A stretch of 32,443 nucleotides of DNA, taken from positions 1 to 32,443 of IMG/VR virus record IMGVR_UViG_3300009187_000052; one strand, 5' to 3'. This DNA is from a virus. The notes under the pieces were generated by a model, which had not been told where the DNA came from, did no database searches, and saw only the letters and a list, made by a program, of their open reading frames with translations. Numbering within the stretch: position 1 is the stretch's first letter; every line of letters starts with the position of its first letter. A program made the translations under genes and the position numbers. Positions 1 through 32,069 of this stretch are shown piece after piece.

Positions 1-506
1 ACTATCTCGACCAGATCGCCCGTCTTAAACTCATTTCCCACCAGAGCTGAGCCACCCCGTTGAAGGGTTTTCGGTGAAGCTATGCCGTTGATCTGCACCG
101 TCGTGGCACCCGTTGGAGTACCACCGGCAAGAAATCTAAAAACCTGTCCTGCGGAGTAGCCGGTAAAGGCGGGAGTCGTGCTGAAGGTGATAGCATTGGT
201 TCCGGTAGAGGTGCCTCCCCACAGAAACGCTCCGTCCTGTACCTGCCCCAGCGAGGCATAGTGAGTTCGCGCCGTGGCGTTCCCGACGTTTGTGTGCTTG
301 TTACCGCCCATCGGAAGGTCGCCCGTGGCCGCGTTCTGTCCGTCCTTTGTTAAGCAGTTGTTGATGCCGAGAGCGATGTCTTGATCGTGAGTATCAAAGC
401 GGGCAGCAGTAATCTTGTAACCAGCATTTTGATCATCTTGCCAAACGGTAGCTCCGAAGAAGCTTCCGTTAGTGCGTTGAAAGGTGCCGGATCCGTTCCA
501 TCCCAT
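1..506 (-). CDS. Tail fibre protein, N-terminal part (runs off the left edge)
   Basis: This reading frame starts with ATG at 506 and stays open for 168 codons to the window edge, so it is incomplete at its 3' end. A GGAGG ribosome site lies at 516-520, nine bases before the ATG, and only four bases separate the gene from the stop of the transglycosylase protein upstream. The opening MGWNGSGTFQRTNG and the stretch around residues 53-92 (LTKDGQNAATGDLPMGG, then HYASLGQVQDG) are typical of the virion-attachment end of podovirus tail fibres. Residues 100-168 look like a beta-rich shaft start. I infer a host-recognition fibre attached to the tail. Its 3' end may be the S74-type tail at the right edge of the window, which lies on the same strand. 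Confidence 0.85.
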   Translation of the reverse strand, partial: MGWNGSGTFQRTNGSFFGATVWQDDQNAGYKITAARFDTHDQDIALGINNCLTKDGQNAATGDLPMGGNKHTNVGNATARTHYASLGQVQDGAFLWGGTSTGTNAITFSTTPAFTGYSAGQVFRFLAGGTPTGATTVQINGIASPKTLQRGGSALVGNEFKTGDLVEI

Positions 507-20642: not shown

Positions 20643-21635
20643 ATGCAGTTGCAAAAAACCCCAACTGTCTCAAACCTCTGGCTCGCCGTTTCCGCGTGGC
20701 TTGCCCAGCTTGCGCCCACCACGCAAACCACCTACGTTTCAGTGATAAAAGAGTTCTGTAGCTTCCTTGGGGCTCAGGCGGGGACAGGGGTTGCAGCTAC
20801 CCTCCTCCAAGAGGTGCGCGCCCCGCAGGCGCTCGCTTTCGTACAGGCGGCAAAAAACCAACTGGGACACCGGCCCCGATACCAAAAGAAAGGCACCAGC
20901 AAGGCTGCTCCCGCTACCATTTACAAAAAGATCATGGTGCTGCGGCGGCTTTACGGAGTTTTAGTTGCCCACCAGCTCGTGCCGACCAATCCATTCCTTC
21001 GCGAGCTCCTGCCCCTGCCAAACCCCCAGGGCGGGCGAAAGCGCGACACGGAGATGCTCCCCTTCGATAGTGTGCGACCCCTGATGAAAAGCATTGAAGA
21101 GGGACCCCGCAAAACGCGCGACAGCGCCATCCTTGCCTGCTTATTTGGAGGGGGCCTCCGACGCGGCGAGATCGTAAAGTTGCTCGTTGCTGATGTGGCA
21201 CGCACCTCGCAGGGAACCACTTACCTCGCACTGAGCAAAACAAAGGACGGGCAAGATCACCGGCAAGCACTTCCCGCATGGGCTGCCGAGCGCGTGTGGG
21301 CGCTAGTCGCAGAGCGGCGAACTATGGGGGCACTCCCCGAGGATCCCCTCTTTGTCACCTACACCGGACAAGGAGGGCAAACCCCAACCACGCGCGCCAT
21401 GCCTGCGTGCGCCGTCTACCACCTCTTTCGACGCTCGTGTGAGAAGATTGGCCTTGCCCCTCACTATAGCCCCCACTCAGCGCGGGCGACCGCTATCACA
21501 AAGCTCCTCGCTGACGGTGTGCCCCATAGGCAGGTGCAGGAATTTAGCCGCCACAAAAGCATCACTATGGTCGAGGTGTATGATAAGCGTCGGTTTGAAG
21601 TCGACCACTCACCTGCAAAATCGCTGTCATTTTAG
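20643..21635 (+). CDS. int: Tyrosine recombinase (integrase)
   Basis: A 330-residue protein with a SAM-like core-binding domain (about 10-120) and a C-terminal catalytic domain. Visible catalytic residues are Arg173 (GLRRGE), a lysine in LSKTKDG (about 199-201), His278 and Arg281 (HSAR), His304 (SRHKS) and the nucleophile Tyr313 (VYDKR). The enzyme should be active and would integrate or excise the phage genome, so the phage is probably temperate. The gene is divergent from the late operon. No clear ribosome site precedes the ATG, which suggests low or leaderless translation. A hairpin terminator lies 83 bases after the stop. No att core could be identified. Confidence 0.92.
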   Translation: MQLQKTPTVSNLWLAVSAWLAQLAPTTQTTYVSVIKEFCSFLGAQAGTGVAATLLQEVRAPQALAFVQAAKNQLGHRPRYQKKGTSKAAPATIYKKIMVLRRLYGVLVAHQLVPTNPFLRELLPLPNPQGGRKRDTEMLPFDSVRPLMKSIEEGPRKTRDSAILACLFGGGLRRGEIVKLLVADVARTSQGTTYLALSKTKDGQDHRQALPAWAAERVWALVAERRTMGALPEDPLFVTYTGQGGQTPTTRAMPACAVYHLFRRSCEKIGLAPHYSPHSARATAITKLLADGVPHRQVQEFSRHKSITMVEVYDKRRFEVDHSPAKSLSF

Positions 21636-22046: not shown

Positions 22047-22060
22047 CCCGCATCTGCGGG
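22047..22060 (+). promoter_or_regulatory. Hairpin overlapping the ribosome site of the RHH gene
   Basis: CCCGC (22047-22051) pairs with GCGGG (22056-22060) across ATCT. The right arm contains the first bases of the GGGAGG ribosome site (22058-22063) for the TTG start at 22069. When folded, the hairpin would hide the site and lower synthesis of the regulator. Confidence 0.5.
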
Positions 22061-22068
22061 AGGTTTCT

Positions 22069-22230
22069 TTGCCACGCCCCAAAACAAAAGCAAGCGAAAA
22101 GCGAAAGCGCATCATGTTAGCCATGCGCCCCGATATTCACGAACGGCTGCGGCGGATGGCTGCACATGAAAACCTAAGCATGAGCCGCTACATTGAGAAG
22201 CTTGTGCTCGAGAAGGCGGGAAACAAGTGA
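22069..22230 (+). CDS. Ribbon-helix-helix (Arc/CopG-type) regulator, 53 aa
   Basis: A short gene that is easy to miss. It starts with TTG at 22069, five bases after GGGAGG, and encodes a basic N-terminal arm (PRPKTKASEKRKR). A ribbon-helix-helix fold follows: strand at about 14-19 (RIMLAM), helix A from RPDIHERLRRMAAHE (20-34) and helix B from SMSRYIEKLVLEKA (37-50). Arc, Mnt and CopG repressors of this type bind palindromic operators as dimers or tetramers. The last four bases overlap the GTG of the HNH gene (GTGA), so the two are co-translated. The paired palindromes 350-430 bases upstream are possible targets. No membrane or metal motif is present. Confidence 0.75.
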   Translation: MPRPKTKASEKRKRIMLAMRPDIHERLRRMAAHENLSMSRYIEKLVLEKAGNK

Positions 22231-22643
22231 AGCCTTGTTTTGAGTGTGGCAAGCCAGCAAAAAACCGCCACCACGTTGTGCCCCGTATTTTAGGCGGCAA
22301 AAAGACCGTCCCTTTGTGCGATACCTGTCACTCCCTTGCCCACGGGCGAACTGGGAGCTGGAACACAAGCGAACTGACCAAGGCGGCTCTCGAACAGAAG
22401 CGGGAAGAGGGTCGTTTTACCGGCGGGCGGGTCCCCTTCGGTTACATGTGCCAAGATGGGCAGCTCTACCCGTGCGAGCCCGATATTGGGGTGCGCCAGC
22501 TCATCATGCTGTGGCGCTCGACGGGGAGTGCCTTTCAGAAGATAGCCAAAGCCCTTGACGTCATCGGGGTCCCTACCAAAACCCAGCAATCACGCTGGAA
22601 AGAGGCGACAATACGAAAAATCTGCGCTCGGGGGCTTTTTTAA
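22227..22643 (+). CDS. HNH-type zinc domain fused to a serine-recombinase DNA-binding domain, 138 aa
   Basis: Residues 1-40 form a compact HNH nuclease-like module: CFEC (4-7), HHVVPR (15-20), CDTC (31-34) and a final His39. Residues 60-138 resemble the 'Recombinase' (PF07508-type) domain that follows the catalytic domain in large serine recombinases (GRFTGGRVPFGYM, then FQKIAKALDVIGVPT, then WKEATIRKICAR). The serine resolvase catalytic domain itself is absent. The protein may therefore be a small site-directed nuclease or a DNA-binding partner. It starts with GTG at 22227, overlapping the RHH regulator. The domain resemblance is visible in the sequence; activity is unproven. Confidence 0.75.
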   Translation: MKPCFECGKPAKNRHHVVPRILGGKKTVPLCDTCHSLAHGRTGSWNTSELTKAALEQKREEGRFTGGRVPFGYMCQDGQLYPCEPDIGVRQLIMLWRSTGSAFQKIAKALDVIGVPTKTQQSRWKEATIRKICARGLF

Positions 22644-22660: not shown

Positions 22661-23017
22661 ATGACCCGACGCGGTACGGAACTCTTAGACCTGCCCACCC
22701 TTGCTACCTCAAAAGAGGGTCGCACAGCAGTGTGGCTCAAGGTATCAAACGACACGGAGCGCGTCTGGCTCACCGCTCGCCACGAGGTCATCGTGGAGGT
22801 GAAAGTGGGGAATCATTGGTCTGTTGCCGACCGGTACCACCTCTCAGACGCACACGCGGCGGCTGCCCTCGTGTTCCACAAACATTTCAAATTTCAAGGC
22901 TGCCGATCCTGCCAAGAAGGGGGCCTTGCCATTCAACGCGACTGGCGATTTTGTCCGCATTGCTCCGCACCCATTCAGCGTCGAGGTCGAGCACGTCACA
23001 GACCCACAAGTAGCTAA
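22661..23017 (+). CDS. Zinc-ribbon protein of unknown function, 118 aa
   Basis: Function unknown. Residues 20-78 are a mixed beta/alpha part (VWLTARHEVIVEVKVG). Residues 81-101 hold two Cys pairs, CRSC (81-84) and CPHC (98-101), in a zinc-ribbon arrangement. The tail is basic. It follows the HNH gene by 17 bases but has no clear ribosome site, so the start is uncertain. Its last 131 bases lie opposite the end of the leftward 126-residue gene. The paired Cys motifs argue that the frame is real despite this unusual convergent overlap. Confidence 0.5.
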   Translation: MTRRGTELLDLPTLATSKEGRTAVWLKVSNDTERVWLTARHEVIVEVKVGNHWSVADRYHLSDAHAAAALVFHKHFKFQGCRSCQEGGLAIQRDWRFCPHCSAPIQRRGRARHRPTSS

Positions 23018-24737: not shown

Positions 24738-24989
24738 TTATAATTTGGGCAACTTTGTTGCCGCTGCCGCTGCCTGCCGAAGCGCTTTGATGAACTCCTC
24801 AGGGGTCATGCCCGACACCTCGTACAACTTAAGCACCTCGCCCATTCTGACCAGTTGATCAGGGTTGCGCCGCTTGTATGCCCACTGCCGTGGCTCTCCG
24901 AAAGCTTGCGCCAGTTCGTGATTCTCCCAGCCCAGATGCGCTCGAATTATTTCGTGCAAACTGAGCTTCGTATTTTTTTTTGACCCCAT
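24738..24989 (-). CDS. Helix-turn-helix protein, possible Cro/CI-type regulator, 83 aa
   Basis: A small protein with helical segments LSLHEIIRAHLGWENHELAQ and FGEPRQWAYKRRNPDQL that look like an XRE/Cro-type helix-turn-helix. A further helix (MTPEEFIKALRQAAAA) and a basic C-terminus follow. It is the first gene of the leftward control unit and is divergent from the early operon at 25121, the usual place for a phage repressor. I prefer ATG at 24989; a GTG at 25010 would add seven residues. Codons 3-6 contain a run of nine A, which is unusual and could allow slippage. The HTH match is moderate. Confidence 0.6.
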   Translation of the reverse strand: MGSKKNTKLSLHEIIRAHLGWENHELAQAFGEPRQWAYKRRNPDQLVRMGEVLKLYEVSGMTPEEFIKALRQAAAAATKLPKL

Positions 24990-25038
24990 GCATTTTCCAT
25001 CTTTCGTCACTGCCGCCGCTACGCTATGGTCGGGGCGT

Positions 25039-28400: not shown

Positions 28401-28612
28401 TGAGTGACAACGATTTGATAAAAGCGTCAACCGACATTGAGCTGGAAGTGATACCGGCAGACCAGAAAGAGATTTTTCGGATAGTCCCGACAGCGGACGG
28501 CTTCGATATCGTGCTCGGCGAAGGCGTAACGATGACCGAGGCGGCGCGGGTCTTTGTTGAGCATGTACGAGCACGGTTTATAATCGGAGGTGGTGATGAA
28601 CAAGACACCTGA
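28400..28612 (+). CDS. Small early protein, 70 aa
   Basis: ATG at 28400 overlaps the upstream TAA; the ATG at 28391 sits directly against AAGGA and is too close to use it. The protein is acidic with alternating beta and helix (ELEVIPADQKEIFRIVPTAD, then VTMTEAARVFVEHVRARFII). No catalytic or metal motif. Its end overlaps the ribosome site and start of the first DUF551 gene. Confidence 0.65.
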   Translation: MSDNDLIKASTDIELEVIPADQKEIFRIVPTADGFDIVLGEGVTMTEAARVFVEHVRARFIIGGGDEQDT

Positions 28613-28940
28613 AGAGTTGGCGGAAAAGTGGGCTAGTAACCGATGTCCAGAGCAAGGGCCGGAATTTATAGTTTGGAATATGTGCAAGGATGACTTTCTC
28701 GCTGGCTACCAAGCCGCAGCGCCTCAGTGGATCTCGGTGAAGGATAGGTTGCCGGAGGAGGATCTTCCAGTCTTGGTATATGGGCAGGTTCTTAATGATC
28801 CTGCCGAGACTCTTGGAGTCAGACGAAGATACAATGGCGATCAAGAATGGAAACACACTTGGGAATCTGAAGACGGTTTTATTTATCGAGAAGATGATGT
28901 CACCCACTGGATGCCGCTACCTAAGCCACCGGAGGAATAA
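28596..28940 (+). CDS. DUF551 protein, copy 1, 114 aa
   Basis: ATG at 28596 follows GGAGG by five bases. The N-terminal module (TPEELAEKWASNRCP, then DFLAGYQAAAPQ) leads into DUF551: WISVKDRLPEEDLPVLVYG with the closing DDVTHWMPLPKPPEE. DUF551 proteins are common in phage early regions and have no proven function. A clear paralogue lies two genes downstream, and a third gene shares the AGYxAA module. The stop overlaps the next start (TAATG). Confidence 0.8.
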   Translation: MNKTPEELAEKWASNRCPEQGPEFIVWNMCKDDFLAGYQAAAPQWISVKDRLPEEDLPVLVYGQVLNDPAETLGVRRRYNGDQEWKHTWESEDGFIYREDDVTHWMPLPKPPEE

Positions 28941-29278
28941 TGAACAACCAATCAGTACGAAATAGGTTGTATTCTTACATTGTTTTAAACACTAGTGGCG
29001 ATCAACAGCCTGAAGAGATTTGGATTAACAGCGATGATTTTAAAGAGTTTTACGCAGAGTTAAAGGAAATACAACGTCACAATTCACTTGCTATACAAGC
29101 TCCATACGACAAACGATTGGCTGGTTTTAGAGCAGTATTATTTAGTGGTGCTGCAATTATTTGGAATCCAGAAGCACCATCATTACCAAAAACCTGCGAA
29201 GAAATGCGAGACTGGTTGAATGTTCCTTTTGAAATAAAAAGCGAATCTAAGCCCGAACCGCCGAAGGAGGAGAAATGA
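28940..29278 (+). CDS. AT-rich gene between the DUF551 paralogues, 112 aa
   Basis: No family recognised. The protein is acidic and mixed alpha/beta (SYIVLNTSGDQQPEEIWINS, then FRAVLFSGAAIIWNPEAP). Its DNA is visibly AT-richer than both neighbours, with codons such as TTA, ATA and AAA, although it keeps TAATG and ATGA overlaps on its two sides. It looks like a recent arrival between duplicated genes. GAGGAG ribosome-like bases near its end serve the next gene. Confidence 0.7.
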   Translation: MNNQSVRNRLYSYIVLNTSGDQQPEEIWINSDDFKEFYAELKEIQRHNSLAIQAPYDKRLAGFRAVLFSGAAIIWNPEAPSLPKTCEEMRDWLNVPFEIKSESKPEPPKEEK

Positions 29279-29613
29279 AAAGCCCCGAGACACTGGCAGA
29301 GGCGTGGGCGAAGCAGCGCACTCAGAGAAGAAATGGCACCCAGCTCGTTTACTTGGTCAGTGAGCTTGCACTGGCAGAGGACAGCTTCATGGCAGGCTAC
29401 AAGGCGGCGCAGCCCCGCTGGATCTCAGTGACTGAGGCGCTGCCGGAGCCCAGTCAGGTGGTGATGATCTACGGCCCTGAGATCCTATGGTGGGCGGCGC
29501 ATATCGTTCAAGATCACGATGGGTGGATGTGGGTTGGCCCTCTTGCAAGTGTGCACCCAGATGAGGTGACGCACTGGCTCCCTCTCCCAGATGACCCTTT
29601 GGGGGCGCCATGA
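29275..29613 (+). CDS. DUF551 protein, copy 2, 112 aa
   Basis: A paralogue of the gene at 28596. It shares the N-terminal SPETLAEAWAKQRT, the middle FMAGYKAAQPRWISVTEALP and the ending DEVTHWLPLPDDP. The two copies diverge in the central part, where this one has HDGWMWVGPLASVH. Function unknown. GGAGGAG lies just before the ATG, and the start overlaps the upstream TGA (ATGA). Confidence 0.8.
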   Translation: MKSPETLAEAWAKQRTQRRNGTQLVYLVSELALAEDSFMAGYKAAQPRWISVTEALPEPSQVVMIYGPEILWWAAHIVQDHDGWMWVGPLASVHPDEVTHWLPLPDDPLGAP

Positions 29614-31169: not shown

Positions 31170-31245
31170 TCCGTGGTAGCTCAGTTGGTAGAGCAGCGGC
31201 CTGTTAAGCCGCGCGTCGCAAGTTCGAGCCTTGCCCACGGAGCCA
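31170..31245 (+). tRNA. tRNA-Asn (GTT)
   Basis: A full cloverleaf is visible. The 7-base acceptor stem is TCCGTGG/CCACGGA, the D-arm GCTC...GAGC, the anticodon stem GCGGC/GCCGC with loop CTGTTAA (anticodon GTT at 31203-31205), and the T-arm GCAAG-TTCGAGC-CTTGC. Discriminator G is followed by encoded CCA. All stems pair perfectly, so it should be functional. It follows the last early gene by six bases, with no promoter seen, and is probably cut from the operon transcript. It ends two bases before the convergent late gene. Confidence 0.95.
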
Positions 31246-31247
31246 CT

Positions 31248-32069
31248 TCACCGATAGGTGCGGTGCAACCAACGCGAGAGGGCCTCAATATCGGGGCCAG
31301 CTCGCTTGCAGTCGCGCTTTATCGGGTCGCCTGCCCATGACGACCCCGACCCGTTACAGTTGAACCCGTGCGCCCATACAAACCGCAGGTCGCAGCTGCG
31401 GGTCCGAGCTAAAAACTGCGCCGCGTCCACATCACGCGCCGAGATGCCATCGAGGTCTGAGATACAAGGGGCGCGCAGGTTAGGCTTGTCCCCATGCTTT
31501 TCGCACACAAAGCCAGAAAGGCATCGATCTCGGTGCGGACTATCCACAAGCGTACACTGAGGCAGGTAGGCGCCCGCAAGCCGGTGTAGCAGCAGCCGCG
31601 CCTCCTCGTTAAGATCAGACTCGAGCACGGGAGAGAGATAGCAAGTGACTCCCCCCCTGCTCTTTTCCAGCCTCGCCCGTATTCGCTCAAGGATCGCCCC
31701 CATTCGCCCCACGATGCGCGACGTGGCCCGCTTTAAGTCTCGGTGGGCCCCCGATACGGTAAAGCCAGAAAACACCTCGTGGCGGCCACAGCGGCGGTTT
31801 CGCATACAGGGCCCGTTTGCCACATGGATACGCACCTCCTTCGGGCGGCGATCGGCGAGGATAGCATCAGCACACGGGCAGGAGCTCCCAAACGACTGCT
31901 CCAACCAGCCGGTGCGGATAACAGGGTGGCCCTTGTAGGCGCTTAAGGATTTTTGGCAGGGCCAAGTTTTGTTGCAGATCCCAAGATAGGATAAACCGAC
32001 CCCCTGCGCCGTTGCCACGCTCGAGGTGGCTACCAGCACAAACACTGCGGCGGCACCCCAGCGGATCAT
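31248..32069 (-). CDS. Exported cysteine-rich protein, possible lysis enzyme, 273 aa
   Basis: An N-terminal Sec signal is clear: basic start, hydrophobic AAAVFVLVATSSVA and a likely cut after ATA (residue 21). The mature part holds 14 Cys, so several disulfides in the periplasm are expected. Segments CYLSPVLESDLNEE, PQCTLVDSP, ISDLDGISARD and RFVWAHGFNCNG resemble a little-studied group of phage exported proteins, possibly hydrolase-like, that lie in lysis positions. I cannot assign a catalytic site. The ATG overlaps the TGA of the membrane/coiled-coil gene. It would be the last gene of the late operon. Confidence 0.7.
   Translation of the reverse strand: MIRWGAAAVFVLVATSSVATAQGVGLSYLGICNKTWPCQKSLSAYKGHPVIRTGWLEQSFGSSCPCADAILADRRPKEVRIHVANGPCMRNRRCGRHEVFSGFTVSGAHRDLKRATSRIVGRMGAILERIRARLEKSRGGVTCYLSPVLESDLNEEARLLLHRLAGAYLPQCTLVDSPHRDRCLSGFVCEKHGDKPNLRAPCISDLDGISARDVDAAQFLARTRSCDLRFVWAHGFNCNGSGSSWAGDPIKRDCKRAGPDIEALSRWLHRTYR

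What the first reader, a model, noticed from the sequence alone, without database searches (positions are those of the whole stretch)
22069..22643. RHH regulator co-translated with an HNH/recombinase-domain fusion that lacks the resolvase domain
A 53-residue ribbon-helix-helix protein overlaps by GTGA a protein joining an HNH-like zinc module to the DNA-binding domain of large serine recombinases, with the catalytic domain absent. The pair, in a lysogeny control region beside a tyrosine integrase, could be a regulated targeted nuclease, an excision helper, or an anti-competitor device. I know of no described system of this exact make-up.
Basis: partly seen in the sequence, partly recalled or inferred. 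Interest (0 to 1): 0.7.

Follow-up and report, generated by a model that had tools for sequence, protein, structure and literature searches.

The report
Phage nuclease with borrowed recombinase grip
A small protein of an uncultured temperate phage joins a DNA-cutting (HNH) head to the DNA-gripping tail of a serine recombinase; it belongs to a large family of viral cutters with swapped tails, and the regulator gene overlapping it seems peculiar to this phage.

Summary
The sequence features are real. A 53-aa ribbon-helix-helix (RHH) ORF (22069-22230) overlaps by GTGA a 138-aa ORF (22227-22643). That ORF pairs an HNH/treble-clef head (nearest solved relative by sequence: IscB's HNH) with the post-catalytic DNA-binding tail of a serine recombinase; the resolvase domain is absent. 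Wider searches changed the picture. (1) The RHH partner looks local: of 58 upstream neighbours scanned only this phage's own is an RHH. (2) The fusion is not unique: about half of 90 non-redundant viral proteins carry a serine-recombinase-type tail; full-length fusions were almost absent from sampled cellular genomes. (3) In four unlinked phage lineages such a gene lies within 1 kb of a complete serine recombinase; in two (L037, L092) the two tails are each other's best match. (4) At one such locus the gene is present or absent beside the same recombinase, and another nuclease can fill the slot, as with free-standing homing endonucleases; in phages nearest the window's it is fixed near the terminase. 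The window phage has a tyrosine integrase and no detected serine recombinase, so its target is unknown. Best reading: a site-directed free-standing HNH endonuclease. Cutting foreign recombination sites (compare ICP1 Odn) stays open. No activity was tested.

The parts
22227..22643 (+). 138-aa HNH / recombinase-tail chimera (stop included)
22227..22352 (+). HNH treble-clef head, residues 1-42: C4/C7 and C31/C34 knuckles, H15-H16, H35, H39
   Evidence: conserved columns; metal and catalytic roles recalled from HNH enzymes
22362..22640 (+). serine-recombinase-type DNA-binding tail, residues 46-138 (GG..PFGY and helical domain)
   Evidence: phrog_95 3.6e-12; YokA 159-246; Z about 9 to Bxb1 and SPbeta integrases
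22069..22230 (+). 53-aa ribbon-helix-helix protein, TTG start
   Evidence: HicB/Arc-like
22227..22230 (+). GTGA start/stop overlap of the two ORFs
22047..22060 (.). perfect palindrome CCCGCATCTGCGGG, 8 bases before the RHH start; candidate RHH operator or weak terminator
   Evidence: function inferred only
20643..21635 (+). tyrosine integrase (neighbour, 591 bp before the HNH ORF)
   Evidence: PF00589 1.4e-21
22661..23017 (+). 118-aa ORF with a C-terminal zinc-ribbon-like end, 17 bp after the HNH ORF; possible operon member
   Evidence: weak zinc-ribbon matches only, all below cut-off

Best explanation
The 138-aa protein is a free-standing, site-directed phage endonuclease: a small HNH head whose DNA recognition comes from the tail of a serine recombinase of the resolvase/integrase kind. 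Inferred mechanism: the tail docks on a recombinase-type half-site, which puts the HNH head where the recombinase's catalytic domain would sit, and the head nicks or cuts there. As with other phage free-standing HNH genes, cutting would favour spread or retention of the gene and its neighbours, or remove competing DNA. In this phage the gene sits in the integrase region and probably shares a transcript with an RHH regulator that keeps it in check. Shown: domain make-up, conservation of the active-site histidines, purifying selection in relatives, presence/absence at one relative locus. Inferred: cleavage, target site, regulation, homing.
For: Both domains supported by sequence, and the tail also by fold. 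Family of 90 non-redundant viral proteins from one HNH-core pattern, the window's included: 49 of 90 match Pfam Recombinase (E<=0.05), 55 of 90 phrog_95 (E<=0.01), 11 of 90 resolvase HTH_7; others carry other HTHs or tails without such a match. H39 and C7, not demanded by the pattern, are invariant in 90 of 90; C4 in 89 of 90. Relatives found without forcing HH still have it: 10 of 10 fusions of the second pattern set that were not already in the first and whose head is in view (two related groups), and L147, found through TerL. dN/dS is below 1 in 35 of 35 pairs with a computable value, at or below 0.23 in 29 of 35 (pairs overlap, many dS values are high). Slot polymorphism: of 13 relatives of one serine recombinase, 5 have the family's HNH gene upstream and 8 do not; in L168 a homologue of the gene found upstream elsewhere stands directly before the recombinase; in L169 a different 399-aa HNH_5 nuclease fills the slot. 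The design matches T4 mob genes, an HNH domain joined to a distinct C-terminal region (passages of PMC2988022), and Skunavirus HNH genes with diverse C-termini (passages of PMC12724721).
Against: No cleavage, binding or mobility was measured. The Asn of classical HNH motifs is missing: position 26 is K or R in 71 of 90, and the IscB alignment shows a four-residue shorter hairpin. In the phages nearest the window's, 8 of 8 TerL relatives (7 distinct; L013/L014 are identical where they overlap) carry the gene at the same place, so no empty site is seen there. No relative of the window phage lacking the gene was found, so its own mobility is untested.
Confidence: 0.55

Rival explanations
1. Recombination-site-directed nuclease: the tail was taken from a recombinase so that the protein cuts that recombinase's own sites. 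Next to a recombinase it would act on the element's own or allelic sites; in the window phage, which has no detected serine recombinase, it would attack sites of competing plasmids, satellites or phages, as ICP1 Gp88/Odn does with a borrowed replication-origin-binding domain.
For: Resolvase-domain genes occur in 18 of 100 HNH-bearing viral records and in 14 of these 18 lie within 1 kb of the HNH gene, in four lineages not linked by shared DNA: one group of 11 linked records plus L037, L048, L092. Tails of neighbours are mutual best matches in L037 (51 of 84 identical; score 254, next best 184-186) and L092 (47 of 105; score 240, next best 106). For the L039 recombinase the seven best HNH tails all come from loci with an adjacent recombinase (adjacency). 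With the full window protein the best plasmid hits are resolvases of small plasmids. Odn precedent: passages of PMC8263062.
Against: Within the L039 group own pairs are not the best pairs; L048's pair is weak (65); L041, L073 and L120 sit beside a recombinase but their HNH tails are unrelated to it (at most 32). In L059 and L020/L075 the two genes are convergent, not an operon. The tail tree does not resolve. The window's tail is about 37% identical to the best recombinase tail tested (32 of 87), and its last 70 residues alone hit only 3 plasmid records, best E 1e-3. 8 of 13 L039-type recombinases have no such HNH neighbour.
Confidence: 0.25
2. Packaging or replication accessory: a resident HNH protein working with the terminase, like HNH proteins beside TerL in other phages.
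For: In the nearest relatives the gene lies 1.0-1.4 kb from TerL in 8 of 8 loci, on the opposite strand (TerL confirmed by PHROGs for L014, 6.6e-40). In Skunavirus all 89 GVE2-like HNH genes lie between TerL and portal and are tied to packaging (passages of PMC12724721).
Against: In the window it is 2 kb from the small terminase gene and beyond the integrase; elsewhere it lies in many contexts. A recombinase tail is not expected for this role.
Confidence: 0.08
3. Type II toxin-antitoxin pair: RHH antitoxin upstream, overlapping a nuclease toxin.
For: Gene order and 4-nt overlap; RHH matches HicB/antitoxin-type models.
Against: No PADLOC match at E<=0.1; the RHH fold fills nearly all 53 aa, leaving little to neutralise a toxin (inference); no RHH among the other 57 same-strand upstream neighbours scanned.
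Confidence: 0.06
4. Catalytically dead DNA-binding protein (regulator or excision helper) using the tail only.
For: Canonical HNH Asn absent; in L037 the gene follows a recombinase and an HTH_17/MerR-type gene, a kind that can act as directionality factor (recalled).
Against: C4, C7, H15, H16, C31, C34, H35, H39 are kept, and the head changes more slowly than the tail in most pairs.
Confidence: 0.06

Closest known systems
Phage free-standing HNH homing endonucleases (T4 mob type; intron-encoded I-HmuI has the same plan)
   Same: N-terminal HNH head with a distinct C-terminal DNA-binding region; intergenic; presence/absence at a relative locus
   Different: tail is the DNA-binding domain of a serine recombinase rather than the usual homing-endonuclease modules; homing not shown; HNH Asn absent
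ICP1 Gp88/Odn, origin-directed chimeric nuclease
   Same: phage nuclease joined to a DNA-binding domain shared with another element's site-binding protein
   Different: Odn's nuclease domain comes from another family of putative homing endonucleases and its binding domain is RepA_N; here HNH plus recombinase tail; target unknown
Serine recombinases: ~225-aa plasmid resolvases, large serine integrases (YokA, Bxb1)
   Same: post-catalytic DNA-binding tail, same fold
   Different: catalytic Resolvase domain absent, replaced by HNH; none of the further C-terminal domains of large integrases
IscB HNH domain
   Same: closest solved HNH by sequence (4e-8 to 1e-5)
   Different: no RuvC, no guide-RNA parts; shorter hairpin without the Asn
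IS607 TnpA/TnpB pair (recalled)
   Same: serine recombinase coupled with a nuclease; an IS607-like pair lies near L097
   Different: TnpB is RNA-guided RuvC; here the nuclease itself carries the recombinase-type tail

Membership tests
HNH-fold (His-Me finger) proteins | treble-clef with CxxC knuckles and HH...HxxxH | tested here: met
   fold match weak (Z 4.4)
Classical H-N-H motif nucleases | central Asn of H-N-H | tested here: not met
   K26; K/R in 71 of 90; hairpin shortened relative to IscB. Filed under the fold, not under the classical motif; Asn is replaced in some HNH-fold enzymes (recalled)
HNH-fold (His-Me finger) proteins | metal-dependent DNA cleavage | not testable with these tools
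   no experiment
Serine recombinase | Resolvase catalytic domain with nucleophilic Ser | tested here: not met
   no PF00239 match in the protein; no serine recombinase among window ORFs of 70 aa or more by phmmer with two queries. Not filed as a recombinase
Serine recombinase | post-catalytic DNA-binding tail | tested here: met
Free-standing homing endonuclease | HNH head plus DNA-binding tail, intergenic ORF | tested here: met
Free-standing homing endonuclease | occupied versus empty sites between conserved flanks | tested here: inconclusive
   seen at the L039-type locus; not seen in the window's nearest group (8 of 8 occupied); no test for the window itself
Free-standing homing endonuclease | cleaves the empty allele and converts it | not testable with these tools
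   no experiment
Odn-like competitor-directed nuclease | DNA-binding domain closely similar to that of the targeted element | tested here: inconclusive
   window tail 32 of 87 identical to best recombinase tested; L037 51 of 84
Type II toxin-antitoxin | conserved antitoxin-toxin pair | tested here: not met
   RHH not found beside other members tested; no PADLOC hit

The most novel reading that the evidence does not exclude
Phages repeatedly turn a serine recombinase's DNA-binding tail into a nuclease guide: the HNH chimera cuts recombination sites, either beside its cognate recombinase to drive retention or homing of the locus, or, as in the window phage, to destroy plasmids, satellites or rival phages that rely on such sites. 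This would be a protein-guided, recombination-site counterpart of the origin-directed nuclease Odn.
Probability: 0.25. Interest if true: 0.8.

Novelty: new variant of a known kind. Interest (0 to 1): 0.55.

Why it matters
It names a widespread viral gene family, built by exchanging the catalytic domain of a serine recombinase for an HNH head, that no title or abstract start in my paper searches names. The pairing with complete serine recombinases in several lineages, with matching tails in two, gives a direct prediction of where the nuclease should cut, since recombinase sites can be mapped. That makes nuclease-recombinase partnerships and inter-element conflict at recombination sites testable. 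Compact HNH proteins with recombinase-defined specificity could also be of technical use.

Tried and rejected
RHH-HNH as a conserved two-gene system: rejected for the loci tested. Defence system: no PADLOC match. Truncated recombinase pseudogene: rejected, because the head is a conserved HNH and relatives are under purifying selection. Serine recombinase in the window phage acting as partner: none found (the window record itself was not in the PF00239 and PF00589 record searches). An empty site for the window's own gene: not obtainable; scans with the integrase and the 454-aa neighbour found only the near-identical contig. Relatedness of tails by tree: 26 of 46 inner branches open, not used. 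I first took the L173 slot ORF for an AP2-type nuclease; Pfam gave no family, so no claim is made. I first took the gene on the far side of the HNH gene in L014/L045 for the small terminase; PHROGs gives only HTH/DNA-binding, 'Rnase E' and other weak matches, so that name is dropped; TerL itself is confirmed. L178, a second relative of the L037 recombinase, ends about 130 bp after it and cannot tell. Full-length relatives in named phages: five tblastn queries gave no place covering 80% of the query in 50,697 records; for three of the partial hits I saw feature tables only, with annotated CDSs of 223, 222 and 621 aa under the match, and one record had no annotation. Cellular genomes: pattern scan, 1 true fusion of 4 hits; profile search of 1,576 sampled genomes in four phyla gave a full-length match only in the genome that had seeded one draw (at most 10 candidates per genome were scored in 101-104, so misses are possible). 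Output was cut on screen; counts come from later scripts on the stored data. In one search two of 60 upstream ORFs (L031, L078, the longest) were left out.

Full report
What is there. The window is a 32,443-base IMG/VR virus record with a portal, major head and both terminase subunits on the minus strand and a tyrosine integrase at 20643-21635 on the plus strand. Behind the integrase come an 87-aa orphan ORF, a 53-aa RHH ORF (22069-22230, TTG start) and a 138-aa ORF (22227-22643, GTG start), the last two overlapping as GTGA. One other contig carries the same genes: no nucleotide change in the RHH ORF, two silent ones in the HNH ORF.

The domains. Pfam alone is weak for the 138-aa protein (HNH_5 1.9e-4, Recombinase 0.004, both below cut-off). 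PHROGs gives an integrase profile at 3.6e-12 for residues 46-132 and HNH profiles for the head. A profile of 40 relatives finds IscB's HNH (4.3e-8 and about 1e-5) and the SPbeta serine integrase YokA, residues 159-246 (2e-7), among PDB sequences. The AlphaFold2 model (mean pLDDT 88, pTM 0.63) has serine integrases as its best fold matches. VIA-align places residues 51-138 on Bxb1's tail (Z 9.3, 2.6 A over 88 residues); residues 1-43 lie on IscB's HNH only at Z 4.4 (2.5 A over 43, 35% identity), a value the tool warns is common. So the post-catalytic DNA-binding tail is kept and the catalytic domain is replaced by an HNH head. The best plasmid hits are resolvases of about 225 aa from small plasmids (Solidesulfovibrio, Marinitoga, Polaromonas, Cyanobacterium), whose tails end about where this one ends.

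The family. With the window's own copies they hold 102 distinct proteins, 90 after clustering at 85%. Of the 90, 80 match Pfam HNH, 49 Recombinase and 11 HTH_7 at E<=0.05; 55 match phrog_95 at E<=0.01. Others have different tails. The pattern itself forces H15, H16, P19, G23, G24, T27, P29, C31, C34 and H35 (and L or F at 30); C7 and H39 were not forced and are invariant in 90 of 90, C4 in 89. The Asn of the HNH motif is missing: position 26 is K or R in 71 of 90. A second pattern that does not force HH gave 15 true fusions of 19 hits in viral contigs (4 of them already in the first set) and 1 of 4 in the species-genome collection; all 10 new viral ones with the head in view have HH, though they fall into two related groups. 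Forty-three protein pairs were compared: 35 have a computable dN/dS, 0.03-0.79, 29 of them at or below 0.23, mostly with a more conserved head than tail; in eight dS was saturated.

The RHH partner looks local. phmmer with the RHH over 8,591 ORFs of 90 loci (E<=0.1) found only its own copy. Pfam on 58 same-strand upstream neighbours found RHH families in one, the near-identical contig's copy. The remaining loci have an opposite-strand or no upstream ORF, or (two) were left out. A perfect palindrome lies 8 bases before the RHH start; it is a candidate operator, no more, and was also picked up as a terminator-like site.

Neighbouring recombinases. Resolvase-domain genes occur in 18 of 100 HNH-bearing records and lie within 1 kb of the HNH gene in 14 of these 18. 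Eleven of the 14 are linked to one another by shared DNA; L037, L048 and L092 are not linked to them or each other. In L037 the order is recombinase, HTH_17/MerR-type gene, HNH chimera, and the two tails share 51 of 84 aligned residues; in L092, 47 of 105. Each is the other's best match by a wide margin among the tails compared. Against this: L048's pair is weak, within the big group own pairs are not the best pairs, L041, L073 and L120 have HNH tails unrelated to the recombinase next door, and in L059 and L020/L075 the two genes converge. Tyrosine integrases occur in 13 of 100 records (one below cut-off). Of 11 measured, only L006 has it within 1 kb; L014, L045, L058, L066 and L036, which carry HNH proteins among the nearest to the window's, have it 3.8-5.7 kb away; L016 and L021 1.3 and 3.2 kb; L023 (contig perhaps permuted), L095 and L107 are far. 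In the window the distance is 591 bp.

Mobility. Of 13 relatives of the L039 recombinase, 5 have the family's HNH gene just upstream and 8 do not, by a motif search of the fetched flanks. In L168 a homologue (43-70% identical over the matched parts) of the gene found upstream in the five occupied loci stands directly before the recombinase. In L169 the slot holds a different HNH_5 nuclease, in L167 a second Resolvase-domain ORF, in L173 a 299-aa ORF without a Pfam match. This is what free-standing homing endonuclease genes look like. In the window's nearest relatives the gene is fixed: 8 of 8 TerL relatives (7 distinct) carry it 1.0-1.4 kb from TerL on the other strand (TerL by profile).

How it probably works. 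The tail should dock on a recombinase-type half-site and bring the HNH head to the place of the recombinase's catalytic domain; the head would nick or cut there. Each of these steps is inference from the fold. T4 mob genes have the same plan and two of them nick one strand (passages of PMC2988022). Phages are known to build nucleases with borrowed site-binding domains: ICP1 Gp88 uses a RepA-type domain to cut satellite origins (passages, part of the abstract included, of PMC8263062; found through passages of PMC10448857). Since the window phage has no detected serine recombinase, its target would lie elsewhere, which keeps the anti-competitor reading alive.

Novelty. Ten full-text searches listed no paper whose title or abstract start names an HNH/serine-recombinase-tail fusion. 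Of the papers I saw listings and, for five, passages; no paper was read whole, and subscription journals are mostly not held. I file it as a new variant of a known kind: a phage HNH endonuclease with an unusual, recombinase-derived tail.

Noticed in passing
window 31170-31245 +: tRNA-Asn (GTT) gene inside the phage record; a possible attachment site for the tyrosine integrase.
   Followed up: no
window 51-250: 200 bases at the left end are 84% identical to the end of contig L049, the only DNA-level match between the two contigs.
   Followed up: no
window 24738-25010 -: 90-aa ORF without Pfam match resembles a small HTH-like ORF of L045 (37% over 49 aa), so the window phage and the L014/L045 group may share a control gene besides integrase and HNH gene.
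   Followed up: partly
window 28590-28940 and 29275-29613: two neighbouring small ORFs look like paralogues (WISV...P..THW.PLP motif), as read and cross-hits.
   Followed up: no
window 31248-32069 -: 273-aa ORF with a signal-peptide-like start at the right end, no Pfam or PHROG match.
   Followed up: partly
L105 4120-4578 and 4771-5184: two tandem HNH/recombinase-tail genes in one phage.
   Followed up: no
L152 976-1401 and 1878-3732: the HNH chimera L097 lies about 0.5 kb from an IS607-like pair (MerR-headed serine recombinase and a TnpB-like 415-aa protein; naming recalled from the sequence).
   Followed up: partly
L128 4655-5278: Bacillus sp. MM2020_1 contig encodes an HNH chimera with the classical Asn and a longer Recombinase tail, the only full-length one seen in a cellular genome.
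   Followed up: partly
L167 1802-2422: a second, divergent Resolvase-domain ORF occupies the slot before an L039-type recombinase (PF00239 4.5e-11).
   Followed up: partly
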